From: Epinephelus fuscoguttatus | Taxonomy: Eukaryota; Chordata; Actinopteri; Perciformes; Serranidae | Assembly: GCF_011397635.1 (NCBI RefSeq) | Contig: NC_064756.1 | Coordinates: forward strand, 35,309,996-35,373,995 | Length of the DNA: 64,000 nucleotides | Direction: 5' to 3' | Shown: piece after piece, positions 1 through 48,636 of the stretch | Position numbering within the stretch: the stretch's first letter is position 1 | How the letters are laid out: every line of letters starts with the position of its first letter | Notes under the pieces: generated by a model | The model's database searches: none | What the model was told of the DNA's origin: nothing | What the model saw: the letters and a program-made list of their open reading frames with translations, nothing else | Made by a program: the position numbers and the translations under genes

Positions 1-240
1 CACTGCCCCAGGGCCGCTACAATATGCTATCTACAGAGATAGCACTGGCGATCTGAACCGGTCAGTGGCGAAAAAAAGCACTTTTATATGCGACGCATTT
101 GCCCCCATCACCGTTTTAGCTCGTTTCGCGGCTCAATACTGAACCAATTTTAGAGCGAGTGGTACCCATGAATCATATGCACACATACACATGAGGAAAT
201 AGAGCCCAGGTTGAAAAATACCGAAGTTGTCCTTTAATAT
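1..240. repeat. Diverged dispersed repeat, truncated by the left edge
   Basis: The stretch that includes 'gcggctcaatactg' and 'gcccaggttgaaaaatac' has a recognisable diverged relative at about 56720-56960, where 'ctctcaatactgg' and 'gtccaggttggaaaatac' occur in the same order and spacing. Two copies in unrelated introns indicate an interspersed repeat. Family not identified; no coding potential seen. Confidence 0.5.
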
Positions 241-25883: not shown

Positions 25884-28800
25884 ATGTCGTACTACAACTC
25901 CCGTAGTTCATCTCGGGCCACTGACTGTAAAGTGTACGTGGGTGATTTAGGCAATGGTGCTGCCAAGGGGGAGCTGGAGCGAGCATTCAGTTATTATGGC
26001 CCACTGAGGACCGTCTGGGTGGCCAGGAACCCACCTGGGTTTGCCTTTGTGGAGTTTGAGGATCCCAGAGATGCAGAAGATGCTGTGAAAGGCATGGATG
26101 GAAAGTAAGTAGTAACCTTTTCTTTCCTTTTTCCAGTAGTTCTCCATTTTGTTCTTCCCATTAAAGGATGGAGCAGAAAAGATGACCCACTACACAATAG
26201 TGTTACAACAGTGTTTAGCCTTAAAATCCTGTGTGTTACCCTGTAACAGAAAAAGAAATTTAAATAGCCTAATACGAAGAGACTTAAGATACAAAGATGT
26301 AATAAATCTAGATTTTTTTTATCCTTGCAGCTGGCATGAAGACCATAGCAGGACAAAAAAAAACAGTCTTTGGCCTCTCTTACTGACCTTTTTCCCCTCA
26401 GGGTCCTTTGTGGTTCCCGTGTTCGTGTGGAGATGTCAACAGGCCTCTCCAGGAAGGGCCGTGGGCGCCCCAGCCGACGCCAGTTTGACCCCAATGATCG
26501 GTGTTACCAGTGCGGGGACCGGGGCCACTATGCCTATGACTGCTATCGCTTCAGCAAGAGAGGAGGCCGCCGCAGCAGCAGGTGAAGGAATACAGTCCAT
26601 TTTGCTTGTAGTTATGACTGATGAGATTAACTTTATCAGTGCACGCTGACACTTGCAGCTCAACATTTATTGCTCTGATGCAAACAGTACTTGCTATCTT
26701 GCACCATCAAGGACAGAAGTGTAAACTTGTTTGTGTTTCTTTTCCAGGTCTCGCTCTCGTTCTCGATCTCGCTCCAGGTCCAGGTCCCGTGGGCGCCGTT
26801 ATCGTTCTCGCTCTCGCAGCCGCAGCCACAGCCGGTACGTCACCACAGACAAGTGGTTGCTTTTTATTTTCAATTTTTTGGTGCTTTGTACATCAAACCA
26901 AATGTATTTGAAACAGAATGTTCTGGTGTGAGCAATGGAGGAGCCAACCATAGCAAATCTCACTGATTATATCAGATTAACAAAGATTAATATCTAAATT
27001 GATAACTAACTTTGCAAATAAGAATCAGCTGGTCCTTGGTTTAGAAGCTGTAATTGTGCCCACTGTCGTATTAATATTTTTGTTAACATGCACACAGCTG
27101 TTTTAATTTTGAATAATAAATTTTAAGTAGTTACACTTTGTCATGTTTATTCATGCCAGCCAGGCCAACAGGTGACCCCTCTGTTTTTACTTTGTCAGGA
27201 GCCGTCGCCGATCTCCATCTTATTCCAGGCGCAGGAGCAGGTAAGAATACAGTTTGCGAAATTATAAGTAACTGTTATGGTAATACATTCATTTGTGTGC
27301 TTTCGGTATTGTTATGGCGTCATGTGACAGATGTAGCTACTCGTCTTGTGTTAATTCAGTTGTGCAGCAGAGGCTAACTGAGGACAGAACAGATGAGTAG
27401 TACATCCCTCAGGGATCAATTAAGTACATGTGCAGTGTGTGTGAAATTTTTTCAGCCTCGCTCTGCTAGTTAATGCGTCAGGTGTTGCCATCGTTCCCAC
27501 CATAGTTATAATTAAATCCACTTTATTTCCTGTAATACTAGGTCTGGCTCCCCAGCACGTTCCAAGTCCAGGACTCCAGTGAGAAGGTAGGTTCTGAAAG
27601 CTGCAAGTTTACACACCATCATTACACAGCTTGTATCTGAAACACAGTGTCACATTTAGCAAACCACAGTGTAAACAAAACACAGAAATTCAGGAAACAA
27701 ACTACATCTACAATAAATAAGAAAGAATTTGGATTGATCGGTCCAAATAAATGGGACAGTGACAAGATTGTCAACTATATTACGTGAAATGAAGAGGAAA
27801 TTATTTTCCAATGATCTGCAAGAGGATCTCTTTTTACGGCAAACCACTGAAAGAGAAAACTTCCTGACTCCATTTTGGATCAGCCAGTCAGCATGGATGA
27901 CGTGCAGGTCAGCATGTTGAGGTTTTGGGAGCTGTGCACGTCTCTGAGCCTCTGCAAGCTACCCATAACACCTGTATCTGCTTAGGTTTGCCGAGATGTC
28001 TTTATGTATCTCAGCAGAAGCATAATATCAGCCTTTTCGTTCAATAGAGAAGCATGTAAATGTTGTTTTTGTCTCTCTTCTCCAGTCGTTCCAGATCTCG
28101 TTCTCGGTCCGGCTCTGCGCCCAGAGGACGCTCTGTCTCCCGATCCCGCTCGCGATCGCAGTCTGCCAATCACAAGAGGAACAGGTAAACCCTCAGTCTA
28201 CATGTCTCTCATTCACTGAAACAAGGTGTAGGCTGTGAAGTCAATTTCTAGTGCTTAGTCCTGACAGTTGTTTTTACCAAGACATTAGCAAGGTCTAGAT
28301 TAACACTGTAGAATTTAGATATCACAGTTCAGACCACAACTATCTTGCGTTCCAAGAGAGGGCCAGTTATGTTCTTGACGTTATTCAGAACTAGGTGCTC
28401 ATTGTAGGCAGGGATGACTTTGAAATAGGCTCTCCTTCACCGGGGAGCATTGTGCTGCCACCGAACGACTGCCACGTGAAGGTGAGATGGACGACCACCG
28501 AGACTCCTCCAGCTCCTCGACTCAGAGAGATCTGCATCTTCTACCGCGTCTCTTCTGCCACTGCTGTTGGCCAGCAGTGGCATGGCGTGGCGGAGGGGTA
28601 AAGGACAGTGACTTGGGCCCTTTGTCTGGTGTAGGGAAGTATGAGTAGATGACAGATTAGACCTCTCTCTTGTGCTCTTTTTCCAACTCTTGGTAGCTCT
28701 ACACTGTTTAACATCTTATTCAGTCTCACATGATCTTGAAAAAAGAGCACATGAAAGACAGTCTCCACTCAGCCTGTAAACTGTTCAGACTCACAGCAGC

Positions 28801-31500
28801 TAAAAATGCACCCATATCCTTTGTACTCTTTCATCTCACCCACCCTAGGTGAAACTCGATTCTACAGAAATGAACTCAGGCTGACAGACCAAGAGAGAAA
28901 ATTGTATTTAATGAATTGACAAGTGTTAATGGTCAGAGGTAGTCTTGTAAATGTTTTTATTTTTCTTCAATTTAAATTCCCTATCCTGAATTTGGCAACT
29001 CTCCAGAAAAATATTAGCTGTTATCAGACAAAACGACACCATTGGTGTGACTTAAGTTAAGCATCTCTGCAGCACAGTTTTGTTTATTTTTCATATTTTC
29101 TTTAAAGTGGTGGGAGCTGAGCACTGCACTGACAACGCAGATCAGCCTTCGCCTGCATCTGGTGTTAGACAGCGAGAAAGAGGTCGACCTACCGACCGAA
29201 CCCGCCCAACAGTGAATGGGTGACCGTCTGTTCAACCGACGCACACGCTCAGACGAGATCAGCCCGTGCACACATACAGTTGCTCTACTAGAATCACCCA
29301 GCCAGCCAGCCAGCCTTCAGATGTACCAGAGGGCTGACCCACACAGATCAGAGTTCGACCACTACCTTTTTAAATCCATTACCTACCTACCAGACCCCCT
29401 ACCTACCAGAGTTCTTCGGCCTCTGTCTTAGCTTCTGAAAGTGAGAGAAAGAGAGCTGACGAGAGATCAGTCTTCAAGAGCCTCCCAGCGCAGTGTCTCT
29501 CCAAGTTGTAGTCATCCGTCCTTCAGTCCTTTCATCCTTCGCTTCTCTGTACTTGTTGTTTCTGCCACTGTCTCCAAAGGTAACCAAAAATCAACCCCCC
29601 TGACAAGCTCATGTTCATGGTGAAAGAAAATGCACAGGCTTGATGTAGTCTGGAAAACTGGTGATTATAGAGCTAAAGTTGAGCCTTTAACAAGCATGCT
29701 CAGAGTACAAATGTGAGTGCGTGAGAGTGTGTGGATGATCGAGAGAGAGCAAGATGAATATTAATGGGCTGTTAGCTCTGAGGAGGCTTTGTCAGACATG
29801 TTTTTCCTGTTGTGCCATATATGTTGCAACATTATTACCATGTTAGGATGCTTTGTCATTATAGTGTTTATTTTAGTACTCAAACTCAGTACAACAATAA
29901 TGGTGGCTTTCAGATTTGCACTTCTTGGTTGGTGCTAGAATTGATGGGATGGGGGAGGGAAGCTCTGTTGTGCTCTCTGCTGTGATTGACAGGGTTCCCA
30001 CAGTCATGGAAAATCTGGAGGAACGGAATTTCACAATCTCATTTTCCAGGTCTGGGAAAGTCATGGAATTAGTAAAATCCTTAAAAGTTCTGGAAAAGTC
30101 CAGGAAATTTTGTCGTGTGTAATAAAATCAATTGTTACAGTAATCTTTTGGATAACATTCTACATAATGTAACATAATGGCCACTTTATTTTCTGTAACT
30201 GACATAATGCAGCTTTAATATGTGCCGTTGTTATGTTTTGTTTACCATCACATACATTTCTTCATTTTCACGCCGCATTCAGTTTCTTCCTCAATGTATG
30301 CCAGCCAGCTGGAATTATGTTTGAATCTGATATGCTTGAAGAGAAACATAATGTTATGATTGAGGGATTTAACATGTAGGGTCATGAATCCCAGAGTTTC
30401 CATTCCTACGCTATGGCTCACTACTACTATTGAATTGTATTCTTTTTTGGGATGGGGCGATATTCACAGCCAAGACACTTTTTCTGCTGCCATTTACTGG
30501 TAGTGTTAATTATCACAGAACATCATATTTCATAAACTCTTCATGTATGTTTTTGTTTTTAAAAGTCTGGAGGCTTTACTGGGGCGGGAGAGGCAGTCAT
30601 AGCGGGTGAGAACAGAGCCAGGGACTGTAGAGCATGTTGGAGGCTCAAAATCCATGAGTGGGTGGATACTGAACGACCGCCAACAGTGCGCACTCGACTG
30701 GACAGGGACTCCACAGACCTCCCTCCCTCCCTCTGGTTCTCCAACATGCTAAGCAGGCCCTGGGTATCCTCTTACCCACTATGACTGCCTCTACAGCCCT
30801 GGTAAAGTGTTTAGTAAATTTGTGTTTGGTAAAGTGTTTGGTAAATTTAATGCCCCTGCTCCCCAATTGTTTGTTCACAATGATAGGATGAAAAATGTTT
30901 GGCGCTCTTATCACAGTGGGACACATTATAAGGCATTCCTCCCCCCGTCCCTCAAGACCATCCATTTTAGCACCAACCTCATTTCTCTGGTTATGGTATA
31001 GAACAGTTTCCATCCATTTGTGACCCCCACCCACTCTTTGTGTGTTTAGTCATCAAAGGATTAAGTCCTAAATTTCTCCTCAGTGCAGAAACTATGCTAA
31101 TTATGTGTTGTTGTGGGTATGTCAAAAACCAGTGTCAGTTATTTGAATGGGTGTCTTCTCGCCCCGAGGGGTTCAATTATGTAATTAGCTTTTGACCCTG
31201 AACAGTTATTTCTTTGAAAGATTAGCTGCCTTATACAAATATGCCACTTAAAGACAGATAATAATAATTGTGGCTCTTAGGATAAACTTTGGTCTGAGAG
31301 GTCAAAGAGGTATTTGGCACCCATCCAGTTATGAACTTTCTCTAAAGGTCTAAACTGTGTTAAGATGTTGAGTACTGTAGAATTTTGTGTCTGATCATTT
31401 ATCCATCCTCCCCTGTGGCAAGCTAACTCTTCACCATTTCTGTTTCAGTCGCTCCCGTTCAGCAAGTCCACACCGAAGCCCTACGCCAGCGGACGACTGA
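25884..31500 (+). CDS. srsf7: Serine/arginine-rich splicing factor 7
   Basis: Nuclear SR protein that binds exonic enhancers, promotes splice-site choice and aids mRNA export. Coding exons: 25884-26104, 26402-26581, 26748-26834, 27199-27240, 27542-27586, 28086-28184, 31449-31500, giving 241 aa, close to mammalian SRSF7. The RRM spans about residues 15-86 with RNP2 KVYVGDL and RNP1 [13 protein letters not shown] zinc knuckle (C108, C111, H116, C121) separates SRSF7 from the otherwise similar SRSF3. Residues 122-241 are an RS domain ending SPTPADD. The start is the first ATG in the second exon, 10 nt after the acceptor. All six coding introns are in phase 2 and exons 3-7 are multiples of three, so single exon skipping keeps frame. 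Intron retention would meet an immediate stop at five of the six donors. Confidence 0.96.
28389..28481 (+). other. Candidate alternative (poison) exon of srsf7
   Basis: In the 3.26-kb last intron, an acceptor-like 'gacgttattcag' is followed by 93 bp and a strong donor AAG|GTGAGA. Joined to the preceding exon in phase, it reads R-T-R-C-S-L and then TAG, so inclusion would end the frame early. SR genes commonly autoregulate through such exons (known biology). This particular exon is a prediction without transcript support. Confidence 0.25.
29985..30125. repeat. Interspersed repeat, 'gttcccacagtcatgg' type
   Basis: Contains 'gggttcccacagtcatgg' and repeated 'gtctgggaaagtcatgg'-like phrases typical of a widespread fish repeat. 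Ends are approximate. Confidence 0.5.
30292..30445. repeat. Dispersed repeat, copy B
   Basis: Diverged copy of 6971-7135 in the same orientation. 'agccagctggaattatgttt' is shared, and a 12-bp internal segment present in copy A ('tagagtttgaat' region) is missing here. Confidence 0.6.
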
Positions 31501-32310
31501 GTGAAGAAGACATATTAGTTCCTTAACAGACAGACCCTCAACCCCTGCACCCTGTCTGCTTTTACAGCCCTACAGCAGCTTTTTTTCTTGTACTTGTCTC
31601 ATCCCAGTATTGTTTTAAGTTTAATTTTCTCCCCAGGACTGTTGTCTTCATGCAGCCTCAGGTTGTTGAAGTCTGTTTAGTACACAAAAAATCAGTTTCC
31701 TTTCGACAGAGGTTGTTTTAGGTGTTGCTGCGGCTGTGTCTTTCTTCTCTGAATTCGCATAACAAGTGTAAGAAGCACCAATCTCAATGTTGCCGTTGAC
31801 TTTTAGCAGTGATTTGAGCAGCTCGTACATTAAAGTTTCAGTGGAAGACAGCCCACTTGATGCAGTTCTTGAGGGTGAAGACAATGCATTGGAAAACTGC
31901 TTTTATTCCCTAACATTAACACACATGAAAATCTATCCCCATTGAGAAACGGTAATCAATTTTTCTGTATAGCTCTCCAATTAGATTTTTGAGTTCAAAT
32001 GTTGTTTAACCTTTAGTCATGATGGCAAAAGGAGGTAGTTGCTGGCCTGCATGCCTTTAAATAGGATGTCGCATTCCTACTGTCTGTTGTTTCTGTACTG
32101 CACTGCCCCTTTTATGAACCTGATCACCTTCACTGTGTGCTGAATATGTTTTCCCCATGTGTTAGTCTCAGATTTGTTCCAGTGACTTTTAATTTGTGCT
32201 GAAGTTTGATTTCTGTAAGGGCTCCTCCAACAGTTTTGATGTGTTCCTGGCTTATATGGTAAGACAGTGGCAGTTTTATTTTTGAATAAACCTCTTCAAC
32301 ATACCTCAGT
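31501..32310 (+). other. srsf7: srsf7 3' UTR with poly(A) signal
   Basis: About 0.8 kb between the TGA stop and a canonical AATAAA at 32285-32290, followed by a GT/T-rich stretch. This is the expected end of the srsf7 transcript. Confidence 0.7.
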
Positions 32311-33029: not shown

Positions 33030-36000
33030 ATGGCTGCTACAGCGAGCCGTTACTACAGCGAAGACGGCAGGGCAACGAAACGACAGAAAACCGACGGAAT
33101 GGCCACGGTGAGTTTTTTCTGTGTGGGCTGCAGTGGAGGATTAGTTTAAGTTACATAACGAGCGCGCTCGGCTCGGTTACGGTGCTCGTGGTTGAATTTG
33201 ATTCATTCAGATGCGCGCGTGGAAAAAATGTGTCACGACGCGTCCGAGGTCAATAAATAATGTTTGTGTGGAGGCTCATCGTGCATAACTGTTGTTTTTA
33301 TGAACGTTTCACGTATATTATACATGGAGGGTTTACAAGGACACAACTTGAAGCATGGAGAGCACATATACCTGTGCTGTGCTGACTCAGTGGGAACGTT
33401 GAGGGCGGTTTCCCCCGGTCGGGCCTCGCCTGAGCCCGGCTTTGTTCTAGTGCCGGTAACGGCTAGCACTGTGCTAGCTGTAAGCTGCTCATTGTGATTA
33501 GTCTGGGCAGCGTCACAGCAGCCGTGTGAGGTAGCACTTGAGTCTTAATGTGCATTAAGGTTTACTCAAATCGATATTGTCTTTATAGTCGGAGAGGAGC
33601 GTGTTAATTAAACTATAAACTAATAAATGGCAAATACTGGCCCCTCCCCCAACAATAACCTGAGCTAATTAACGTAAGTATGTCATGTCAGGGCAAATGC
33701 AGAACAACAAATGAGCAACATAATGTGTGTTTTCTGTTTTTAAAAACCGTTACTTGTTATTAACAAAGAATGTGATTCACCCATTCAGAGGTGGAAGAAG
33801 TAGTCACATCCTTTCTTTAGCTTTTCAAGTGCCAGTACCACACTGGAAATACTCCATTACAAGTAAAAGTCTGCATTTAAAACTTTAAGGAAAGCATGTA
33901 AGTATTAGCAGAAATACTTAAATTGCCAAAAGTGAAAGTAACCATTGTGTGTAGTAATTATCTTTTTTTTTAATTATTATATATGATGCCTTTTGATTTA
34001 AATTACTGCTGCATCAAAGTGTGTGTTGCATTTTACTGCATTAGATGTTTATAGTATACAAAGAACAGTAGAAAGTTGCATAAATTGGGGTGCCTTGCGT
34101 TTGTTCTTGAGTACAGTACTTGAATAAATATATTTGGTTACATTTCCATCACTGCCCTCCTTTATTTTCTTTCATTAATTTCTATGGCAGGGACAAAAAC
34201 GTGAATATTATATTTTAATTCCTGTTCCTCCCTAAATATCTGTTAAAAAGTTCATATACATCCCAATAAATATCCTCAAAATAGCACAACACGCATCCAG
34301 TAATAAATATTTCCATAATATAACACATGGTAGTTTGCTATACTACTTATAATACTACCTGTCTATACCTGCACACACCTCAGGTTACAGTTTTTCCCCA
34401 CCACACCAGTTCACCACAGTGGTTTTATTTAATTCTATACTCTATATAGGCTTATGTATATTAAATTTTAATTCTATTTAAACCTCTGTACAATTTTGTC
34501 ATGGATTCTCATTTTTATTTGCATGTTCTTTTACACAGATTTTGTAGTAGCTTTGTTGGAGGGAGCCAGACAACAAAGACTGTATTGCCAGCGACTGCTT
34601 TTCTGTTGCTGTGGTGCATGTGACGAGAAAGGACTTGAAAATACAGTCAGTGTTAAATACGTTGTAAAATATTGCAAGAAATAGCAGAGGACAGTTCAAG
34701 ATGGACAACAAGATTGCAGCAGTGGCTCCCACACATGTGTACTTGAGATAAGACGAGTGTAAATATTACTGACCATGTTTGCTCATTTTCTGTTTTCCTC
34801 AACATAGGGATACGAAGATCCTCACAAGACCCTTCCGTCTGTGGTGGTGCACGTCCGGGGGCTGGTGGATGGTGTAACAGAGGCTGACCTTGTAGAGGCC
34901 TTGCAAGAATTTGGAGCAATCAGGTAGAGGAAGAGAACAAGCTTAATTTGTGTGAAAATACATATCTATATGCATCCCTTCCACAGTGCTGATTAATAAC
35001 ACTATAATGAATGCCTGTATTATAGCACAGCACTTTGTCAGGTTTATGGTGGGTTTAGTTAGATTGCTTTTATTATTAAACTTTGTACCTTCAGGTGAAA
35101 TGGTTGCAAGACGAGTTCACAGTATCTGCCATTTCATCTAATCTCTTGTTGTTGTTTTCTCTTGTAGCTATGTTGTGGTGATGCCCAAGAAGCGCCAGGC
35201 ACTGGTCGAGTACGAAGACATGAATGGATCATCCACAGCTGTAACCTATGCTGCGGACAACCAGGTTTACATCGCTGGCCACCCAGCCTTTATCAACTAT
35301 TCCACCAGCCAGAAGATCTCCAGGCCGGGAGACTCTGATGACTCCAGAAGTGTTAACAATGTACTTCTGCTCACCATCATGAACCCCATCTACCCCATCA
35401 CCACGGTAAATGCGAAGATTTGCGCTACTGTTTATCTCTTCACTAAAAGTGGGGTGCTTCTCTCATTTTATGATGATGTGTTTTTAATTCTTAAAGAGTA
35501 GCAGTGCCACTGTAAGGGTTGCATTTTGTACCAGGTTGAAGGGGATGAAATGTTCGTAATAGTAGTATTAAGCAGAAGCTTGTGTACAAAAAACAGTTAG
35601 CTAATGTTGTCTCTGCAGTTTGATCCTGCATGGATCAAACTGCAGCATTGTTGTGCTCGCTGTGATTTATCATTTGCCATTGTGTGGTATCTATATACTG
35701 ACGAACTCAACTCCCTTTTTTAACCTGGTACATTCTGACAGGATGTCCTCTACACCATCTGCAACAACTGTGGGCCTGTCCAGAGAATCGTCATCTTCAG
35801 GAAGAACGGTGTCCAGGCGATGGTTGAATATCCTTTTCCATGAGTGCTATTTTAACAGGAGGCACAATCTGATTGCTGACTACCAGATTTGCCACAACTT
35901 TACAAACATTATGTGGCCTGCTAGATTTTCTGCAAGTTGTGACACGCATAAAAAGAACCGTGGCTGGTGTAGTTGAATGACAGGAACTTCTTTGGTATGT

Positions 36001-39000
36001 TATGTCAGTTAGAAGCGCCTAATCTCAGGTACAACCAAACCTGTTTGAAAACATGTTGGCGTATTTCACAGATGCAAATAATAAAACCCTGTTAGCCAGA
36101 GTTCATTGGTGAGTGGCTCATGGCATCTGTTAACCATGAGTAGGCTTATGCACATGCAGGCATTATGGGTACCCGATGAAAACCATTAGTGGTCAAAACT
36201 TAATCATAACCCTGTAGAATTACAGAGGAGCTTGGAACAACATACCTGTGTGCAGGTTTTTTTTTTTTTGTTCTTGTGTGACGTCTGTTAGTCTGCATTA
36301 TCCATCCTGTCATAAAGACAGCCTGGTACATCCCTGTCTTGTCCTTAACACTATCATTACGTTCGACTCTGTGCAAAGTGCCCAGCGAGCCAAGGCATCA
36401 CTCAACGGAGCAGACATCTACTCTGGTTGCTGTACACTGAAGATCGAGTATGCCAAGGTACAGTCGCAAAACAGCCAGTGTTAATAGCCAAAATGAGTGT
36501 GGTGGACACAGAACAGCATAAACACCTGTACAGTATAACACACACCCAACACATTAGCCCTGTGAGGAATGTTCTGAGTAGACAACTCGCCCCATGACAG
36601 CTTAATTAACACACGTTTTTTTTTTAACTGCAACACTGTAAACATGGTATATCTGTTTACCAAAATGGCCCCATCTCAATTTGTCTGTATATGGAGCAAC
36701 TTCATGGCAAACAAAATGAACATACTGTGAACATATATCAGGTTAAACTTTTACTGTGTGTATTTATGCTTGTTTTTATAAAAAAATTATTTCCTCAGCC
36801 CACTCGCCTGAATGTATTCAAGAATGATCAGGACACCTGGGACTACACGAACCCCAATCTGGGAGGCCCAGGTAAAACCTCAAACACCTTAACACATTCC
36901 CAACTGTTTGCTGAGCGCCACACACTGCTAAGCATCCTTACTGCCACTATGGGGAGTTTAAGCAACACCTTCATTGATAATGCTACTATATAGATTTAAT
37001 TTGTGGTCATTATACTAATATAGGTTTTTTGTGATGAACCTGTGTGGCATTATGACTGAAGTGTTGCTTGTGGTCTAATTCTTACACTTTTCAGTACACA
37101 CTGATCAGGGTCCATATGCAGGAGTGAAAAGTCTGGGGAAATGAGGGCTTGATGTGAATAATAATGTTAGATAAAAGGGCTTGCATAATATAACATTTTC
37201 ACTAAACTGTTATTTAGGCCAAAAGCATTCAGTCAAATTCACCTTCAGCATTTATTTATTGTGCATTTTGTCTCTTTCTTGGTAAATTACACTCTGGTTG
37301 TAGGGAGGCATAGAGGGAGACAAAGTGAAAGTGAAAATGGAAAGAAAGAGACCATGGAGGGGCTGAAGTTGCTTTATTGTGAACATGATACCAGTATTTC
37401 ATTTAAGAAAAAAAAGTTAATCGTTAATACCAGTATCGCAACACCCCATCAGATAACTCTTAACAATTCAGCCATAAAAACTTAATGCTGTGGGAAAAAA
37501 AACAAAAGATCAAGAATGTGAAATGAATACATACAGTTCCTGCTAAATATTTTACAGCTAAAATGTTGAACCCTGCTGTGTGGGGGGGAATGACAGGAGC
37601 ACATTTGCAGACAGAAAGATGACTGTATCAGATGAACTGTATTTTTCAAGGTCAGTCATCAGTGACTTTCCTGTAAGTGGACACGTAATGTTTGGAAACA
37701 GTATGTTCATCTCTGTATCCTCAGGCTAGCATTCTTGTTCCTTGTGGCATGCAGTTGTTCTGGTTTCCTTGACCTAATAGGTCCACACTGACAGGGTGTT
37801 GTCTTCACTTACTTTACATTTGAAAGGTGTCCGAAGAAAGTGTATACAAAAACAATGTAGCAACAACTGAAACGAATGAGACTGTGTATCCAGTTTTAGC
37901 ACCTCAGTTGTAATTATTAATTATTGCAAAAATAAATGTCCTTCCATAAAACTTCCACTGGCCCACATCTCTTTGACCAATGTCTTAGTTCAACAGGTAA
38001 AGTCACTGCTTTGTAATAATACAGTGACTGTAAACACATTTGTCAGGTGAAATACTGAGTCAAAAGCAGTTACTGAATACATGCCACATATGTAGCATCT
38101 TAGCACGGGTTGGACAGTGCTAATAAATGAGCATTGAATCTTAAAAGACAAATTTATCTATTGTTGTTTTACACTGTCTTGGTCAGGCCCACCTATAGCC
38201 AGTGGGAAGATATTTAAAAAGGGCATGGGTTAAAGGGGAAATTTGCCATGTTTTGCGTATATCCAATTAGTGTGGATGGTAAATCTAGTCAATTAAAGCA
38301 CTAAATTCCTCAGAGCTGTATTGACAGAAAAGGCTTTTTCCCTCTTGCAACATCCTTAGTGCAGTGCCTACATGCAGCAGGATGCATTGTGCCCAAGCTC
38401 CTGATGCTCAGCCCCCAGATACTCTCAAAACCCACCCAGCTTGTTGAGGTGGGCATTTCAAACATAGCTTTGTTTCCAAAAAGTAAAGTCAACTTAATTA
38501 AATTACTTCTTTGTTTGACTAGAACACCAAACAAAACAAGATAAATTGAATAACACTAGTTTTATCAACTATAAACATGCCCATTGTATAGTGCCTGGAA
38601 GCCGCCCCACCCTCCCCTATAGCTATTACTTTGTTGGCATAAACAAAGCCTTGGGTGACAGAAACTCTCAGTGATCATTTGCCCTTTCAGCCCTGCTGGT
38701 TTTGGTCATCTTTTCCAGTTTATCTGTGCGATCCTGAATAAGATCCTCTGTGATTTTTCAACTGGCCACAGTTAGCCAAACAGCCAGGGACTGACAAAAT
38801 ATTCACACACTTCACTCAGACTCAACAGAAACAAAGTAAAACTCACCCTAGCCACCATGGTTAGTTAGTGCACTGCTCCAAAGATCACCAACTCCAGTTT
38901 GGCTGAATTAAAACTCTAAACTAACATAGGTAGATGTGAACTACTCCATGTGCTGTATTACCCCACTGTTTCTCAGCTGATTGCAGAGCAGCGTCTCTGA

Positions 39001-42000
39001 CTCATACAGGGGCAGAAGCATAAATGAAATGCTAATAATAAAACTGTTGATCCCCTATATCCCTTTTTCGGATAGATGGATATTATTGATTGTGGTCTTA
39101 GACATGAATTACCGGTAAGGCAAATGGCGATGAATGTTTATGTCCTCATTCTGATAAGTGTAAAGGTTTTTTTTGGTTGTGTGTTTGTTTTGTTTTTTTA
39201 ACCCAGTTGTAGTGAAAGCAGGATAAATGAGACTGAAACAGGACTGTTAAACTTTAATTACATGGGGTTCCAGTGCAGTTGAGTTTTCTGTCGGTCAAAA
39301 AATCAGCCCAGAGACAGAAGACAAGAGGTGCTGCTGTCCAACAGGCTGAGTGACAGGATGTTTTTGTTTCCTCTTAGAGAAACTGTTTACATATTTTTAA
39401 GTCATAAAGACACAACTAAGTAGTATTCACAGTTTTCTTTCTGCCGCATTTGCTGTTCCTGCCCTCCTCACCACACCTGTAGATGTTGCAGGGGTTTTGG
39501 AATCTCTAAGGGTTAAATAGGTGTATTAGTTTAAGTTAAAAATTATAGCACCATTACAGTTTTTAACAATTCAGGTAGGGCTGGGCAATACAAGGAAAAT
39601 TAAATCATTCAGTGTTTCAGTAGTATGGATATAATAGAACAGTCTGGTAAGTTTATTTCTTTTCACCAAGAGTGATCCTGGTCTTTTCCACTGTCATCTA
39701 ACTTTGATTTAAAAATTTCCCTTTAGTTGTGTTTTAACTCGACCAAAAACATACTGAAACCTAGCACTTGAGTCCCACTCAGTGCAGCCAAAGTGGGTTT
39801 AATATTAAACAGAAAGTGGGTCTGGTTTTACCAGACCAGGTGGTTTAACTCAGACAGACGACCCTTTTTTTTGAAGTGTGATATGTCTGAGAAGTGAGAT
39901 CAGAGGCAAGGACCAGTATCAGTTAACAGCTGCCGCATCATGTAACCCTTATCTCCTCCTGATAAGTCGGTGATCTCAGCAAGTCCAGAACAAACATGCA
40001 CAGGAGGGAGAGGCAGATACATGCTGACAACATCACCACTCCGCAACCACCATCTCGAGTATCCACTTCTTCAGTGAGGACACAGCCACTATCATACAGA
40101 GGGCCAAACGTCCCCTGAGATACACGGGGATAAACTACAAGGCACTACCCATTCAACATGATGATGTAGGACTGATATACCACTCATTCCTCATCTCCGC
40201 ATTCAAGACCCACGAAGACAACGCACACTTCTAGAGGGTGGGGAGTTTTGGGCACTAAGCTACACTTGGGCCCTTCCCCCTTCTTCTTTCTCACCCACTT
40301 TGAGACACAAGACACATTGAAGCAGGCCAAAGCTTGCATCTACAACCTCCCACTGTCTACACCAAATGGAGACTGATACCAGAGGAGACACAGCATCCAC
40401 CCAAACAGAAGGTAGTGACAGACATCTCAGTACAACAGCTGATGCATACTGATATTAACCAGTTGTAAAAGCCTCAGCCCTTCCTGTACTGTTTTGGGCC
40501 ACATTGCTCGTCATGCTTGTTGACACGAAAACAAAACACTCAAGCAGCACACTCTCCGACACTCGCTGACGCCGTTCCAACTGATCCAATAGATGACTCA
40601 CACCCCTGAATCAAGCTGTAGCCAGCCACATTGGAGTCAACACAAGACAACTGATGAAGACAAGACACTGCTGACAACACCGTCAAGCACACTCAGGCCC
40701 ATTTTTGGTTTTATGTGTTTCCTCCCACATGGAGTTCAGCTTTTCTCTCTTGCTCTTTCTCCTCATCTCTTCATCTTTCCCTCCCTCTGATTTTCTTACT
40801 ACATGCATCCCTGTTAAGCTATCCCTTTTTTGAGTGCAGTTTTTTTTCTTGATATTTTAAAGAACCTGTGTAACACCTTCCATGTGATGCAGGTTTGGCA
40901 ATATGCGGCTAAGAGGAGCCATCTTCCCCAACTGAAATGTGCTCTATGGCAGCCTCAAGGCCTACCCGTGGGCGCTAAGCGGATTATACCAAAAAGGAAC
41001 AAAAAGGATGGAAATGCCAGCCAAACGGCCAACCAACGCACCAATGGGCGTTTCAACTTGATAAAACCAGGAATGGATCCTGAGGTGGAGAGTTGTTTCC
41101 CCAAAAGAGGAAATGGATAGGAGTATGGAATGAAATGAATTGAGTGGAGAGTGGTGGGACTACTGCAGCAAATATCTTCCTCCCCACTGTTTGTAAGCAT
41201 GCAGTAAGTAAATCGAGACCCTCCTCGGGGAACATAACTGCACAGCACCACATGACCCCAAAGCCCAGCACCCAACATCGCCACACAAGACTGACATGAC
41301 TCCATTTTTCCCCTCATACAGGCTTAATCTTTCTTTCTCGAAGAGGGTGTTGGTTGGGGTTCTGTCGGAAACTGCGTTTCTAATGTCACTCAAACCTACT
41401 GTGTGTCTGTTCACTATGTCTTGTCCCAGGAAATCCCATCTATACGTGGTTCCCTGGACTTTCCTTGGGAATTAAAATCATGTTTTTAGAGAAAGGATGT
41501 GAACTTCATATTGATTTTATGTAGGATGTGCTTGACTCATGAACAGCCCACAAAGCGAGGAGAGCTTGTCATCCACCAGCCACAGTGGCTGCTGGTGTCC
41601 AAAATTTAATAGCTGCTTTTTATTTTAGTTGCCAAATTGCTCTTAGAATCTGGAAGAGCCTGGTTGGTCACCTGCAGAGGTACCAAGCCATCCGCATTCA
41701 TAATCAATGCATTTACCTCCCAAATAAGGGCAGACAGCTTTGTCATGAGTGGGTTCACTGCACTCTCCTGACATTTAAATGGGGTGATTTCACTTTTGCC
41801 CGGAAAAAATGTACCTTTTGATTAACCCGGCTTCCATTCTGATTGTGTATGATTGTGTACCTGTACAGATGGTGATGCAGATGGCAATGGGAGCAATGCA
41901 GGTGTGTGTGAGCGTACAAACTTTATATTTAAATTTAGTCATTTGTGATACTTATCCAGAGTGACTTTTGTTTGATATCCTTTTACCTTTTCACTCTTAG

Positions 42001-45000
42001 ATCATCAGCATCCGCCTCATGTTTGCCATTCCCCCCTGTTCCGCTTTATATGCTAAAAGTTGATCATTGTGAATCAGGGTGTGTTTTCAGATCATTCCCA
42101 TAGAACCTAATATCAGTCTTGCCATCTCTTACATCCCCACGCCTCCCTCCCCATTTCTCTCGACCAGTTTTAATACAGAGCAAGGTCGATCACTAAGATA
42201 AGCTGAGCCACTTGGTTTGATTGTTGGAGCCTGTTTGGAGTGTAATGTGGGGGGAGGGCTATAAATCTGTTAAATGGCTCTTTACAGGCAAGATGAATCA
42301 ATCTTGAAATGCATGCATCTGTCTCAAGTACTAATTAAAGTCCTTGATAAAAACACCCATGACAAATTATTTACTTAGTTCATGGTGTGCAATTCGAGGT
42401 AGATTTTGACGTCAAAATGTCATAATACCATATCCTAAATGCTCATATTTACCTGTAACTTTTCCCTTCTCTACCCTTTCTTCTCTTACTTTGTCTTCCT
42501 GTTCTCATAGAAGACGTGAACGCCAACCCCAACAAGCGCCAGAGACAGCCTGCTCTGCTGGGCGACCACCCTCCAGAGTATGGTAAGGCTCTCACTCCCC
42601 TTAGGAACAAGGAAACACACGTGTAGACAAAATACTGAGCTTTACTCTTCCATACTCTGATGGGCAAAGTCACAAAGAATGTTGGCCACTGATAGCGCCA
42701 TGAATTGGGCAATCTGAAACACTGCTTGCGCTAAATCTTTAAAGGACTACTTCTGTTAATACATTTTGTGAAGACAGTCTGAATAATTAAAATTCATGTA
42801 TTTAGGTAAATGTGAGTTTATAAATGGGTCCTCCACACAGTGGCAGTAAAGTGATGCTGTTGTCATTTTTAACTGTGACTATGTATTTATGATAATGAGA
42901 CCAAATCTTTTTCTCGAAGCAGTTGCAAAGCTTTCCAGGAAAAAAAGTTCTCTGTTGATTTGACCGTGTTCATTTTCTGTTCTCTCACTTGCTTGCCTCA
43001 TTCTTCAGGAGGTGGTTACCATGGCTATGACGAGAGCTACGGATCCCCACCCTTTGAGGGTCGCCGCATGGGTCCACCAATGAGAGGGCGTGGAGGGAGA
43101 AGCTACGGGCCAGGCTACGGACCTCCTCCCCCTCCTCCTGGAGAGTATGGTGGCCACGCTGAATCTCCAGTTGTCATGTTGTACGGATTGGACCCTGTCA
43201 AGATGAATGCTGACCGTGTCTTCAATATCTTCTGTCTCTATGGCAATGTGGAACGGGTCAGTATCTGCCGGCAGATGTGTCTGTTTTTGCTGTAAAGGGG
43301 AAGAACAGGCTTTCCACACACTAAGATTTGCAAGCTCCCAGGTTTTTATCAGTGTAATGTTGTGTTCAGGCAAACATTCATATGGCTACAATCACTTGAT
43401 ACACAGTAAGGAAATAACTCGTGATTTCTTACTCATTTTTACAAAAATTGGTTTTATGTCAAGTTCCTCATTTAAATCTGATCTAGTTTTGCTGTGAGCA
43501 GCGGTTGTTGTGTTTCTATGAATAGCTGCACTAACAATAGTAATGACTTTGATTTATCACTTACTGTCAGGCATTAAAGGCCCTCACAGACAAAACAGTG
43601 TTGGAAAAACAATGATTTATAATGTGGCACTGTTTTATACATCTGGTCAGTTTTTTTTTGTTTTGTTTTTTTTTAAGAGGAAAGAGACCTCTGTGGATAA
43701 TTCAGCTCCTAGTAAAAACCTCCTGAATAATGAACACAGCTGAACAATTGAAACTGGGAATTCACGCTTGCTACACAGGAGAAGTTTCAGCTGCAGTCCA
43801 ATCTGCAGTCCTCACTGCTGGATGCCACAAATTCCTGCACACTGCTCCTTAAAGTGACAGGCTGAAGTCATCAGTAGGATGAGGTCTAAAGAATAAAACA
43901 GTGGATTATCAGCTGAAATCTACTCCACACACAAACACACCCTTGCCTGTAGCCATCATCTCACACTCAACTGCTTTTGTCTGCAAAGCAATCTTGTCTC
44001 TTAGGGACAGCTGTTGATCCTTCCCCCTGTCACTTTCCACAGGTGAAGTTCATGAAGAGTAAGCCTGGGGCAGCCATGGTGGAAATGGGAGACTGCTATG
44101 CAGTGGACCGCGCCATCACTCACCTCAACAACAACTTTCTCTTTGGGCAGAGACTGAATGTCTGGTGAGTTCATGCTATCCAGTTCCAAAAATATTTCTG
44201 TTGTACAGAAGTAGGCTGAGGTACTATTCCTCGGGCGTATTCAAACCACTGAAGCCTCCTGAATATGGATCAGATTCATACTGTTCTTGAAATGTAGCCG
44301 TCAGGTCACACAACTGATGAAGGAAGGGAAAGAACTGCACAACCCCTAATATTAATATAACATTCTTCATATATCATACAACCCATTTGTAGTGTATCAG
44401 GATTGTCAGTGCTCCAGCCTCTCATGTCTCTCCTAACTTGTAAAAAAGCAATTTTATAAATGAAATTTATAATCTTCCCTCCCTGCAGTGTGTCTAAGCA
44501 GCAAGCCATTGTACCTGGTCAGTGCTATGAGCTGGAGGATGGCTCGAGCAGTTTCAAGGACTTCCACGGCTCTAGGAACAACCGGTTTACGTCACCAGAA
44601 CAGGCGGCCAAAAACCGCATCCAACACCCCAGCAACGTGTTGCACTTCTTCAACGCTCAGCCAGACGTCACGCCAGAGGTTTTCTCTCAGGTCTGTAGAA
44701 AGGAAAATATGGGGCGTGTGTTTGGAGGAGTGTCAGTTACGTAAACACACACTATCACCTGCATTGTCTTGTTTGTTAGGAAGGCAACAGGCAGAAAACA
44801 CTTCTTACCACTGCTGACTGGGCTTTTTTACATTGGAATTTGCGTATGGCCTGTTGATGTTAGATTCACTACTAAGCATCTGTATAGTGCGTGTGCAGTT
44901 GTGCATAGAGCTGAATATTATTTAAGAGATACCAGTACCCTTAAAGTCATAATTATATCAATAGAATACTTCATCCGATACCCATAATATAAATGCAATG

Positions 45001-48000
45001 GTGTGTAGTGCAACCATAATTTTGAACGTTTTGGTGGCATCTCGGCATGCTGAACTGCCAACTCTGAATACAGCGTGTTTGATTTCACCACACCACAGAC
45101 TGCATGGGTTGTACCTGCTGCTGTGGGAGGCAAACTTGGGTTTCCTGATGGTGAAGGCATGACCTGCCCCACACTCCCTCTGATTGGCTGGTAACAGTCG
45201 CTTTCATTGGTTGGGTTGGTTAGGTTTTGGCAAGAGGAGTGGGATTAGTTAGGGAAAAAATGTCAAGGTAAACCAGTCAAAGGGAAGAATAAGGTGGAGA
45301 AGGGCGGGTCGTGCCTTTCCTATTCTGTGAATCACAACTGTGTCCAGGTGTGTGAGCCCTGTACTGGGTATAGTTGGTTAGAGTCTGCCCACACTCGCAT
45401 AGTAATAGGGCTCACTGTTAGCATCAAGCAGCTAACTTATCTTAAGGGTTGCTCTTTTGATGTCGGTGTGAGTTTGTTTGGAGCGTTCAACAGCTCGGTG
45501 TGGGATGTTACCTGCTGCTTCTGTGTTAGCCCATGCTAACTGGAGACATTGAACTGACTATTTGTCAGAAGGAGAGAGGCTGTCGAGATGGCAGCAACAG
45601 AAAGTTTGCTTATCTTGCAAAAAGTCAGGGCAGTCCAGTATCAGCACCCCAAAAAAGGGACTGAAAGCAGGCATCATTTGACTGGTGAAGTTTTGATTGC
45701 ACTTGGTTCTGGGGTATTTCAGTCGATACATTGAAGTATCGAGTACTGATACCCCGCCCTTGTTGTGCATAAGGGTCAGGTTAACTTCGGAGAGCTGCTG
45801 CTCCACACTCTGGTTCAGGGTGCAGCCCCTGAGCCGAAGAACGAGCCGTTAATGAGCACACACTGTCTGAGTGGAAGATCAAGTACGTTGGGTGGGGGGG
45901 TAGATTGGCCTGAAGAGTAGTTAATGAGTTGGTTCACTAGTGATGGGCGAGACCTGTTGTGCATGTAGTTCTCTAATATGTGTTGTGTTCTTTACAGATT
46001 TGTGAGGAGATTGGTGTCAAGTGCCCTGTCAACGTCAAAATGTTCACAGGAAAGAGTAAGCTGCTTTGATTCTGCTAATTGAGATGTATATTAATGTTTC
46101 AGGTATGCTTGTGTGCAGAAAAATTATAGTTGACATCAAATGTGTCTGCTGTCACATCTGAGGGGTATTCCAGGTAGGAGGTTCAACAGACTCTGAGTCT
46201 AACCCTGAACTCTGAGTTGATTTACCCTGAGATGGGAAACTCTGAGTTACCGGTTCCAGAACAGCTGATTTGAGTTAGTTCAGTCAACTCTGAGTATGTT
46301 CACTCTGAGTTAAGCCGACAATAAAAAGCCATCATCAATGGAGCTCCGACTCCACGATTCACCATGGCAACAGGTAAATAAAAGACAGCGCCTCCATTTT
46401 AATCCAGTGGATGTAGAGATATCAATGCATGAGTAGCAGACGGTGCACGTTTATCTTTAAAAGAAGAGCCTGAGTCAGAGCAAGGAAAGCGTAAATAAGT
46501 TTACCATAAAGTCAATAAAAAAGTTTATTCATTTTATCAGACTTACATTTCCTTAATGAAGATAAAGTGGTGGAATCTGACTGTGTATCAGGCTGTAGAT
46601 ACATTACATTATATTAATAATATATAATAATATATTTGTTCAGATTTAATCTGATGGGGGAAAACACAGGAGGCAGCAACTGAAAAATAGGAAGATTATA
46701 ACATATAGGTCAGGCTATAGATCAAAGACATAAAGACATGACTGTAAACTCACAGTCTGACCCAGTAATAATATGTTTGGTGATTTGCACTTGAAAAGAC
46801 ATTGAGGTTAAAATACAGTAGATTTTAAAATGTTGCACATCTATTTGTATCTTGACTCAACAGCATTCAGTGACTTTATTTCAGCTACAAATGTAGTAAA
46901 TTTAAAGACACTGAAATGCTGCACCATTGTTCACTCAGAAATATTAACATATAATCCCCAATATTAGGCTATAGGAATTATGTTCCATCAGTGCGACCAG
47001 TGACATCAGTGATAGAGATCATTAGTCACTGATACTACATGTCTAAAGCTTCATACCGATTTTTAAAATTTAAATAATTAGAGCTACACATTATGTGCAA
47101 CAAACATTTGGGAGCTGCTCTAACAGACTGACAGTCTGATCCTTGTGCACAGTGTTATAAAAAATAATAAATATAAAAAGGACAGAGCCCAGCAAGCAAT
47201 AGTCGTGATTTAAACGTATTTGCTATATTTAGCTCTGATTTAGTCTAGCTACATGTAACCCAAATCTAGCGGATTTAATTTTGAAATTGATTAAATGTAA
47301 TTTTTGCCATTGCAGATGGCGTGCAGTATGATATTCAATCACGTATGGAGAGTCAACAGTAATTAAAATATGTTTCTCTCCATTTTTTGGACATGGTCTC
47401 TACATAGCCGTATAATTGATGACGTCTACACTTTGGCTATGGTTAGATGTCTACCAAATTTTCACTGACAGCCCAAATTCAGCCGTGATTTAGCCTAGAC
47501 GTCAGGTCTTCATGTAGCTAGACAGCTATTAGATGTTTTTTAAACCAAAAAATGCTTGCTGTGAGGTTTGATTCTGAGCTGAGGATGAATTCTCGCTGTG
47601 TAATATTTGAATGTAAAGACAAAAACCGATGTCCAAAGAAATAATTGATGTGCATAAATTCAGTAACTTAAGACAGTCCTGAGTAAGAAACTAAAAGGCA
47701 GCAGGAATTAGACTGTGACAGACGGTAAATCTCCGCTAATTAATGCACTTCCATACAAGCTTTGACACGGACTGAATGAATGAGGAAATGAAACAGCGTG
47801 TAAGAGGGAGGAGACAGAGAAAAACTCAGGGTTTATTGAAGAAAACCTGTCAGCGAGCAGGTTATGTTCACAGAGTCTGTTACCATGGTGACTGACTCAG
47901 AGTTTCAGTCACCTCTCTTTCTGGAACGGATAACTCAGAGTTTCCCTCATCTCAGGGTTAACTTACTCTGAGTTTTAACATAACCCACTTTCTGGAATAC

Positions 48001-48636
48001 CCCTCTGGAATCCCTCAATAGAAATAAAGTCAACAAAAACAATGTAACAGCCAAGCTGCAATATGTGATGTAAATTTGAGCCCTTTCCCCACCAGGTGGT
48101 GCAGCTCCCAGTGACCGCAGTGCTTCAGGTCTGCTAGAGTGGGAGTCTATCAATGATGCCATGGAGGCCCTGGCCATGATGAACCACTACCAGATGAAAA
48201 ATGCAGGTATGACTGAGACTGAAATTATTCCCATGAACCTTTTGGTGTAGGAGAAGGAATTCAGATTGAAAACAGCCCTGTGTTTAAAAATAAATAAATA
48301 AATATGGTATTAATGTTGGCATGTTGTTTCCGGTACCTTAAAACTCTGCAGTTTGAGAAACAGAGTCAAGAATTGGAAGGCTTTTCACTGCACAGTGGTT
48401 TATAAGGCTTTAAGACGAGTTCATTACTCTTTCATGTTATTAAGCAGTTTCTTTTCTTATTCCAATAAATATAAAGTTAGAAAATAAAACGTAAAACTTC
48501 CCAGAGAAAGACTGGTAGATCTTATGTGTCTTGTCTCTTGTTGCCTAATACCAAGACTCTTCTCTCTCTGTTTCCAGCTGGTCCTTACCCGTACACCCTC
48601 AAACTGTGCTTCTCCACCGTTCAGCACGCCAACTGA
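33030..48636 (+). CDS. hnrnpl: Heterogeneous nuclear ribonucleoprotein L
   Basis: Nuclear RNA-binding splicing regulator that prefers CA-rich RNA. Fourteen coding exons: 33030-33107, 34808-34923, 35168-35405, 35742-35827, 36361-36457, 36799-36871, 41869-41901, 42511-42582, 43009-43256, 44043-44164, 44489-44690, 45998-46055, 48096-48206, 48578-48636, giving 530 aa. Four RRMs lie at about residues 36-113 (VVVMPKKRQALVEYED), 126-215 (RIVIFRKNGVQAMVEFDSVQ), 317-395 (FMKSKPGAAMVEM) and 433-530 (NVLHFFNAQPDV to CFSTVQHAN). The linker between RRM2 and RRM3 is glycine/proline-rich (RGRGG, GPGYGPPPPPPGEYG). The short N-terminus lacks the long glycine run of mammalian hnRNP L. RRM spacing and the NKRQRQPALLGDHP block identify hnRNP L over hnRNP LL. 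Intron 4 is AT-AC. The second exon of the linker is only 33 nt. Confidence 0.97.
33789..34157. repeat. Dispersed repeat in hnrnpl intron 1
   Basis: 'aggtggaagaagtagtcaca' to 'tacatttccatcactgccct', with internal 'aaatactccattacaagtaa', is a widespread fish repeat related to the copy at 23526-24170. No transposase. Confidence 0.6.
35613..35645 (+). other. Perfect 14-bp hairpin in hnrnpl intron 3
   Basis: Arms CTGCAGTTTGATCC (35613-35626) and GGATCAAACTGCAG (35632-35645) pair without mismatch around a 5-nt loop TGCAT. It ends 96 nt before exon 4. A structural or regulatory role is unproven. Confidence 0.7.
35828..36360 (+). other. hnrnpl: U12-type AT-AC intron (hnrnpl intron 4)
   Basis: Exon 4 ends ...GTTGA and the intron starts ATATCCTTTT, the minor-spliceosome AT-AC donor consensus. 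It ends ...CATTAC before exon 5 (GTTCGACTC). A U12 branch-site match GTCCTTAAC lies at 36341-36349, with the presumed branch A 12 nt from the 3' end. Only this AT-AC excision joins VE to FDSVQSAQRAK in frame, as the hnRNP L family requires; no GT-AG pair gives that junction. Confidence 0.92.
36872..41868 (+). other. hnrnpl intron 6, longest intron of the gene
   Basis: Almost 5 kb with few recognisable repeats. A CA-rich tract spans about 40380-40700 ('acaagacactgctgacaaca' and similar). About 41390-41868 is an AT-rich, complex-looking stretch next to exon 7. An uninterrupted 96-codon frame at 40830-41120 has no family features. In mammals the intron after the same exon carries a CA-rich regulatory poison exon; whether this one does is unknown. 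Confidence 0.5.
41869..41901 (+). other. hnrnpl: 33-nt microexon of hnrnpl
   Basis: Flanked by 'ctgtacag' and 'gcag|gtgtgt', this exon fits phase 1 on both sides and adds GDADGNGSNA-type residues between NLGGPG and EDVNANPNKRQRQ. Skipping keeps frame (PG joined to EDVN), so it may be alternative. As I recall them, mammalian proteins have a shorter linker here. Confidence 0.65.
46162..48003. mobile_element. 1.84-kb element with terminal inverted repeats in hnrnpl intron 12
   Basis: Starts GGGGTATTCCAG (46162-46173) and ends with its inverse CTGGAATACCCC (47992-48003). Sub-terminal regions carry many inverted 'actctgagtt' / 'aactcagagt' motifs. Flanks TCTGA and TCTGG may be a 5-bp duplication with one mismatch, or CTG a 3-bp one. 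No transposase frame, so non-autonomous. A nested insert at about 47189-47564 is bounded by CAGCAAGCA and TGCTTGCTG. The right end lies 92 bp before exon 13. Confidence 0.75.

What the first reader, a model, noticed from the sequence alone, without database searches (positions are those of the whole stretch)
35828..36360. U12-type AT-AC intron splits RRM2 of hnrnpl
The donor ATATCCTTTT, branch site GTCCTTAAC and terminal AC at a 12-nt branch distance all match the minor-spliceosome AT-AC class. The protein frame (VE|FDSVQ) demands exactly these borders. A splicing regulator depending on the minor spliceosome for its own mRNA is notable, and standard GT-AG gene finders would truncate or misjoin this gene here.
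Basis: partly seen in the sequence, partly recalled or inferred. Interest (0 to 1): 0.7.

Follow-up and report, generated by a model that had tools for sequence, protein, structure and literature searches.

The report
Conserved minor-spliceosome intron in hnrnpl
A fish-like genome's hnrnpl gene, which makes a splicing regulator, contains one rare AT-AC intron of the kind removed by the minor spliceosome; the same intron sits in all four copies of this gene family found in the genome, so it is an old, ordinary feature of a known kind.

Summary
Intron 4 of a 13-exon, 519-aa hnrnpl gene (33030-48635) is 35828-36360, 533 nt: ATATCCTTTT...TCCTTAAC, AC end 12 nt after the branch A. The other 11 introns are GT-AG. 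The joined exons give RRM2, 60/61 identical to human hnRNP L across the junction. Three equal-length border pairs give that peptide; only AT-AC is a splice-site pair. No frame-keeping GT-AG pair with donor score 3 or more was found. U11, U12 and U6atac genes are present; the U4atac search did not complete. New here: the three other L-family genes found in this genome (one hnrnpl, two hnrnpll) carry the same intron at the same codon and phase, with ATATCCT donors and CCTTAAC branches; three of four end AC, one AG. The intron thus predates the L/LL split. A U12-type intron in human HNRNPLL is in print, as a twintron; no twintron was seen here. Splicing itself is untested (no RNA data).

The parts
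33030..48635 (+). hnrnpl coding region, 13 coding exons, 519 aa (hnRNP-L/PTB family)
   Evidence: gene model; TIGR01649 hnRNP-L_PTB E 2.8e-185, 617 bits against cut-off 287.4
35742..35827 (+). exon 4, first half of RRM2, ends GA of a split GAG codon
35828..35837 (+). U12-type 5' splice site ATATCCTTTT
   Evidence: +4..+10 can pair with U6atac 10..16 of this genome, 6 Watson-Crick plus 1 G-U; the U11 gene found begins AAAAAGGGC
35828..36360 (+). intron 4, 533 nt, AT-AC, phase 2; read through, it adds YPFP and then TGA
36342..36349 (+). U12-type branch site TCCTTAAC; second A 12 nt before the last intron base
   Evidence: the U12 snRNA gene of this genome carries GTAAGGA at position 18
36359..36360 (+). 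terminal AC
36361..36457 (+). exon 5, second half of RRM2

Best explanation
Intron 35828-36360 is an AT-AC (A-type) U12-dependent intron of hnrnpl, removed by the minor spliceosome. It comes from an ancestor older than the hnrnpl/hnrnpll duplication and is kept in all four L-family genes found in this genome. Shown: anatomy, reading frame, sharing between paralogues, presence of U11, U12 and U6atac genes. Inferred: U11 and then U6atac pair with ATATCCTT; U12 pairs with TCCTTAAC and bulges the branch A; exon 4 joins exon 5. If the intron is kept, translation meets a stop after four intron-coded residues, so the transcript cannot make full protein and would be held in the nucleus or decay. hnRNP L output thus needs a working minor spliceosome. 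That the cell uses this dependence as a regulatory dial is possible but not shown; the reported hnRNP L feedback works through a poison exon in intron 6 (review).
For: Exact U12 consensus at donor and branch with 12-nt spacing; strict pairs expected at 0.03 per 64 kb strand. Junction peptide 60/61 identical to human and rat hnRNP L RRM2. The 11 GT-AG introns of the gene have donor scores 4.8-10.2; this donor scores -13.6 as a U2 site (matrix recalled). No frame-keeping, stop-free GT-AG alternative with donor score 3 or more. Same intron and same split codon in 4 of 4 L-family genes found: lengths 533, 138, 98, 772; donors ATATCCTTTT, ATATCCTTTC, ATATCCTTCC, ATATCCTGAC; branches TCCTTAAC, ACCTTAAC, TCCTTAAC, TCCTTAAC; spacing 12, 14, 13, 13. 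By blastn the window-C12 match runs 27 nt into the intron and the body does not match. U11, U12 and U6atac: one match each over cut-off.
Against: No RNA evidence. U4atac was never searched, because the machine was busy at every try (last). 13 of the last 20 intron bases are C or T, so the absence of a polypyrimidine tract is not clear. Unrestricted duplex energies of the branch region with U12 did not stand out: for the window 98 of 424 control segments were as good or better, for the paralogues 60, 139 and 98 of 424 (the U6atac half of that test used the wrong strand and was replaced). The C3 donor has lost the T at +8, and its best pairing is no longer at the U6atac site used by the other three. 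One of the four copies ends AG, not AC.
Confidence: 0.95

Rival explanations
1. A U2-type AT-AC intron removed by the major spliceosome.
For: Such introns exist in sodium channel genes (PMC2831892 passages).
Against: Those carry G at +5; here +5 is C, and donor and branch match the U12 consensus exactly.
Confidence: 0.02
2. A twintron like human HNRNPLL, where U2-type sites compete at the same place and give a second protein or a feedback switch.
For: Human HNRPLL is listed as a twintron (537 against 536 aa). The C3 hnrnpll-like copy has a GT-AG pair shifted +11/+11 that keeps the length, with a weak donor (score 3.5).
Against: In the window gene no frame-keeping GT-AG pair with donor score 3 or more was found, only weaker ones. 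Better-scoring GT donors lie inside the intron (36109 score 8.5, 35995 score 6.4), but the read-through frame stops well before them.
Confidence: 0.05
3. The pair is a chance match and the exons are joined at some other non-standard border.
For: Two sliding borders give the same peptide. A second strict pair in the window (28814-31542), taken to be chance, shows that such matches can occur.
Against: The slides have TA-CG or AT-GT ends. The donor start and the branch core recur in three paralogues, while the body of the C12 intron does not match.
Confidence: 0.01

Closest known systems
U12-type intron (twintron) of human HNRNPLL, Janice et al. 2013 (PMC3564746; parts 1 and 2 of 3 of the text read)
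   Same: Paralogous gene; U12-type intron reported, and the two splice variants are said to differ slightly in an RRM. Two hnrnpll-like genes of this genome carry a U12-type intron at the same codon as hnrnpl.
   Different: The exact position of the human intron was not seen here. The window gene is hnrnpl and shows no competing U2-type pair of reasonable strength.
SRSF10 AT-AC minor intron, autoregulated (PMC7244321, passages)
   Same: Splicing regulator whose productive mRNA needs an AT-AC minor intron.
   Different: SRSF10 has a competing downstream major donor and a non-productive exon; no comparable pair was found for hnrnpl intron 4.
A-type (AT-AN) minor introns dependent on CENATAC (PMC8280824, passages)
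   Same: AT-AC ends, 84% of that class; the AT-AG end of the C16 copy falls in the same class.
   Different: Dependence on CENATAC was not tested here.
HNRNPM U12-type intron (PMC10853781, figure-legend passage)
   Different: A different gene; position not compared.

Membership tests
U12-type (minor) intron, AT-AC subtype | 5' splice site ATATCCTT | tested here: met
   ATATCCTTTT at 35828
U12-type (minor) intron, AT-AC subtype | branch site TCCTTAAC close to the 3' end | tested here: met
   TCCTTAAC, 12 nt to the last base
U12-type (minor) intron, AT-AC subtype | AC terminus that keeps the reading frame | tested here: met
   peptide 60/61 to human hnRNP L
U12-type (minor) intron, AT-AC subtype | no distinct polypyrimidine tract | tested here: inconclusive
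   13 of last 20 bases are C or T
U12-type (minor) intron, AT-AC subtype | minor snRNAs in the genome | tested here: inconclusive
   U11, U12 and U6atac found over cut-off; the U4atac search did not complete
U12-type (minor) intron, AT-AC subtype | same position in related genes | tested here: met
   4 of 4 L-family genes found in this genome; three end AC, one AG
U12-type (minor) intron, AT-AC subtype | splicing fails without the minor spliceosome | not testable with these tools
   no RNA data
twintron (HNRNPLL type) | competing U2-type splice-site pair at the same place | tested here: not met
   no frame-keeping, stop-free GT-AG pair with donor score 3 or more; weaker ones were not excluded
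hnRNP L protein family | near full-length match to the hnRNP-L/PTB model | tested here: met
   TIGR01649 617 bits, residues 36-517, model 1-493 of 493

The most novel reading that the evidence does not exclude
An A-type minor intron held by the hnRNP L and LL genes since before their duplication acts as a shared gate, so that minor-spliceosome (perhaps CENATAC) activity sets hnRNP L and LL output together, and through them a whole programme of major-intron alternative splicing. The C16 copy, AT-AG, would be a natural weak setting of that gate.
Probability: 0.12. Interest if true: 0.55.

Novelty: new member of a known kind. Interest (0 to 1): 0.25.

Why it matters
It fixes the gene model of hnrnpl, where GT-AG-only annotation would break RRM2. 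It also suggests that the minor intron reported for HNRNPLL belongs to the whole L family. The four copies, three AT-AC and one AT-AG, from 98 to 772 nt long and one with a weakened donor, are a small natural series for testing how ends and length affect A-type minor intron splicing.

Tried and rejected
Chance pairing: rejected by the strict search together with the frame requirement. GT-AG alternative: none with donor score 3 or more (donors scanned from 30 nt into exon 4, GC donors not scanned there); one search counted 144 frame-open alternatives of any of GT-AG, GC-AG, AT-AC or AT-AG, of which 25 were printed. hnRNP L self-binding through CA-rich sequence in intron 4: CACA/ACAC density is 11.3 per kb, inside the range of the other 11 introns (0 to 41.1 per kb), so there is no sign of it. 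Rfam over the whole window: 0 matches at gathering score. PTB genes as outgroup: tblastn pieces of five PTB-like loci mostly start near the SLDG/ALDG motif, after the junction, and one (C10) reads straight through the junction point; not modelled further. C16 as a broken copy: not supported. Exons matching RRM3 and the following stretch lie about 38-47 kb downstream; the TAG flagged in one of them is the end of the preceding intron, not inside the exon. No RRM1 exon was found in the 25 kb upstream, so the gene was not seen whole. Literature: nine paper searches (one search listed 25 of 52 papers, the rest I judged from listings and abstract starts) and passages or sections of twelve papers gave no statement of a U12 intron in HNRNPL itself. 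Intron catalogues sit in databases and supplements that I could not open, so HNRNPL may well be listed there. The original hnRNP L autoregulation paper is not held; I cite it through a review.

Full report
What is there. The window is a stretch of one contig of a 1.05 Gb, 26-contig genome (G000:C5:35309996-35373995); its size and contig number fit a fish, which is inference. On the + strand lies an hnrnpl gene of 13 coding exons, 33030-48635, 519 aa, which scores 617 bits against the hnRNP-L/PTB model. Eleven of its 12 coding introns are GT-AG. Intron 4, 35828-36360, is AT-AC.

Check of the observation. The donor ATATCCTTTT, the branch TCCTTAAC and the terminal AC are at the stated places, and the second branch A lies 12 nt before the last base. 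A strict search for such pairs gave 2 on the + strand and 0 on the - strand of the window; 100 Markov sequences gave a mean of 0.03, maximum 1. With one branch mismatch allowed the count is 5 and 0 against a Markov mean of 1.09, maximum 9, so only the exact form is telling. The second strict pair (28814-31542) has its donor inside an intron and its acceptor after the stop codon of an SR-type gene, and is most likely chance.

Borders. Joining 35827 to 36361 gives a 61-aa piece of RRM2 that matches solved human (7evr) and rat (2mqm) hnRNP L at 60 of 61 residues, straight across the junction. Of all equal-length border pairs with an intron of 60 nt or more, three give this peptide: AT-AC, and slides by one base (TA-CG) or two (AT-GT). 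Only the first is a splice-site pair. One search also counted 144 frame-open alternatives of other lengths or weaker sites (GT-AG, GC-AG, AT-AC, AT-AG together; 25 printed). A narrower scan found no frame-keeping, stop-free GT-AG pair with a donor score of 3 or more in the exon 4-exon 5 stretch (the score matrix is recalled).

Relatives in the same genome. A six-frame search with the 61-aa peptide gave 13 matches, which fall into this gene, three further L-family genes and five weak PTB-like places. The three are one more hnrnpl (C12, identical over the 61 aa) and two that match human hnRNPLL best (C16 and C3). All four genes have the intron at the same codon and phase (GA|G or GA|A). Donors are ATATCCTTTT, ATATCCTTTC, ATATCCTTCC and ATATCCTGAC. 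Branches are TCCTTAAC, ACCTTAAC, TCCTTAAC and TCCTTAAC. Spacings are 12, 14, 13 and 13 nt. Lengths are 533, 138, 98 and 772 nt (places). By blastn, window and C12 match 27 nt into the intron and then stop. So the signals are kept while the body has changed, and the intron is older than the L/LL split. Among PTB loci, the pieces seen mostly begin after the junction and one reads through it (not followed further).

One odd copy. The C16 hnrnpll-like intron starts AT but ends AG; the nearby AC would throw the frame into a stop. AT-AG is said to be disfavoured and poorly spliced (PMC3584512 passages), but it exists among A-type introns (PMC8280824 passages). Exons matching RRM3 and the following stretch lie about 38-47 kb downstream with open frames. 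An RRM1 exon was not found in the 25 kb upstream, so I did not see the gene whole.

Machinery. The genome holds one match over cut-off each for U12, U6atac and U11. U12 carries GTAAGGA, which fits the branch site with a bulged A. U6atac 10..16 can pair with donor +4..+10, six Watson-Crick pairs and one G-U. The U11 gene begins AAAAAGGGC. In C3, which has lost +8 T, the best pairing is elsewhere. A looser duplex-energy test of the branch region against U12 did not stand out: 98, 60, 139 and 98 of 424 control segments were as good or better for window, C12, C16 and C3. U4atac was not searched because the tool did not complete (last try).

How it most likely works. Shown: sequence, frame, sharing between paralogues, and three of the four minor-specific snRNA genes. 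Inferred: removal by the minor spliceosome. If the intron is retained, the frame reads VEYPFP and stops, so full protein requires its removal. In zebrafish, the minor introns kept when Zrsr2 is lost are the shorter ones (median 451 bp against 1398 bp; PMC9501576 passages); at 533 nt this intron lies nearer the sensitive group, which is suggestive only. There is no sign of a strong competing major site or of a CA-rich hnRNP L binding cluster in the intron. The reported feedback of hnRNP L works through a poison exon in intron 6 (review PMC7764535 passages). In this gene the only part of intron 6 that matches the C12 stretch tested (C12:3856001-3871000) is 29 nt long and ends just past a likely 3' splice site; an exon starting at 40893 would stop after six codons, so that known switch may well be present here too.

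Against the literature. Human HNRNPLL is listed as carrying a U12-type intron in a twintron, with slight RRM variation between the two forms (PMC3564746). SRSF10 has an autoregulated AT-AC intron; ESRP1 and HNRNPM also have U12-type introns. A splicing regulator with a minor intron is thus a known theme. I did not find HNRNPL itself named as a U12 gene in the listings and passages seen, but intron catalogues were out of reach, so I claim no priority.

Verdict. A real, well-read U12-type AT-AC intron; a new member of a known kind, with the shared presence in all four L-family genes found and the AT-AG copy as modest additions.

Noticed in passing
window 40871-40899 (hnrnpl intron 6): Only stretch of intron 6 that matches the C12 paralogue stretch tested (29 nt, 90%, E 1e-4); looks like a branch and 3' splice site. 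An exon from 40893 would add a TAA after six codons: candidate for the known hnRNP L poison exon.
   Followed up: partly
window 28814-31542: A second strict U12-like pair (ATATCCTTTG, TCCTTAAC, AC at 16 nt) inside an SR-type gene; donor in an intron, acceptor after the stop codon; probably chance.
   Followed up: partly
L022 5094-5191 (G000:C16:38257093-38257190): hnrnpll-like copy with a 98-nt AT-AG U12-like intron, a subtype said to be disfavoured.
   Followed up: partly
L023 4129-4900, - strand (G000:C3:1679128-1679899): hnrnpll-like copy with a GT-AG pair shifted +11/+11 against the U12 sites that keeps frame and length, reminiscent of the mammalian HNRNPLL twintron; weak donor (score 3.5).
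   Followed up: partly
window 26743-31520: Exons of an SR-type splicing factor (RS repeats) directly upstream of hnrnpl on the same strand.
   Followed up: no
window 15756-16265 (+): Exon with a sodium/calcium exchanger domain, Pfam PF01699, E 9.2e-18.
   Followed up: no
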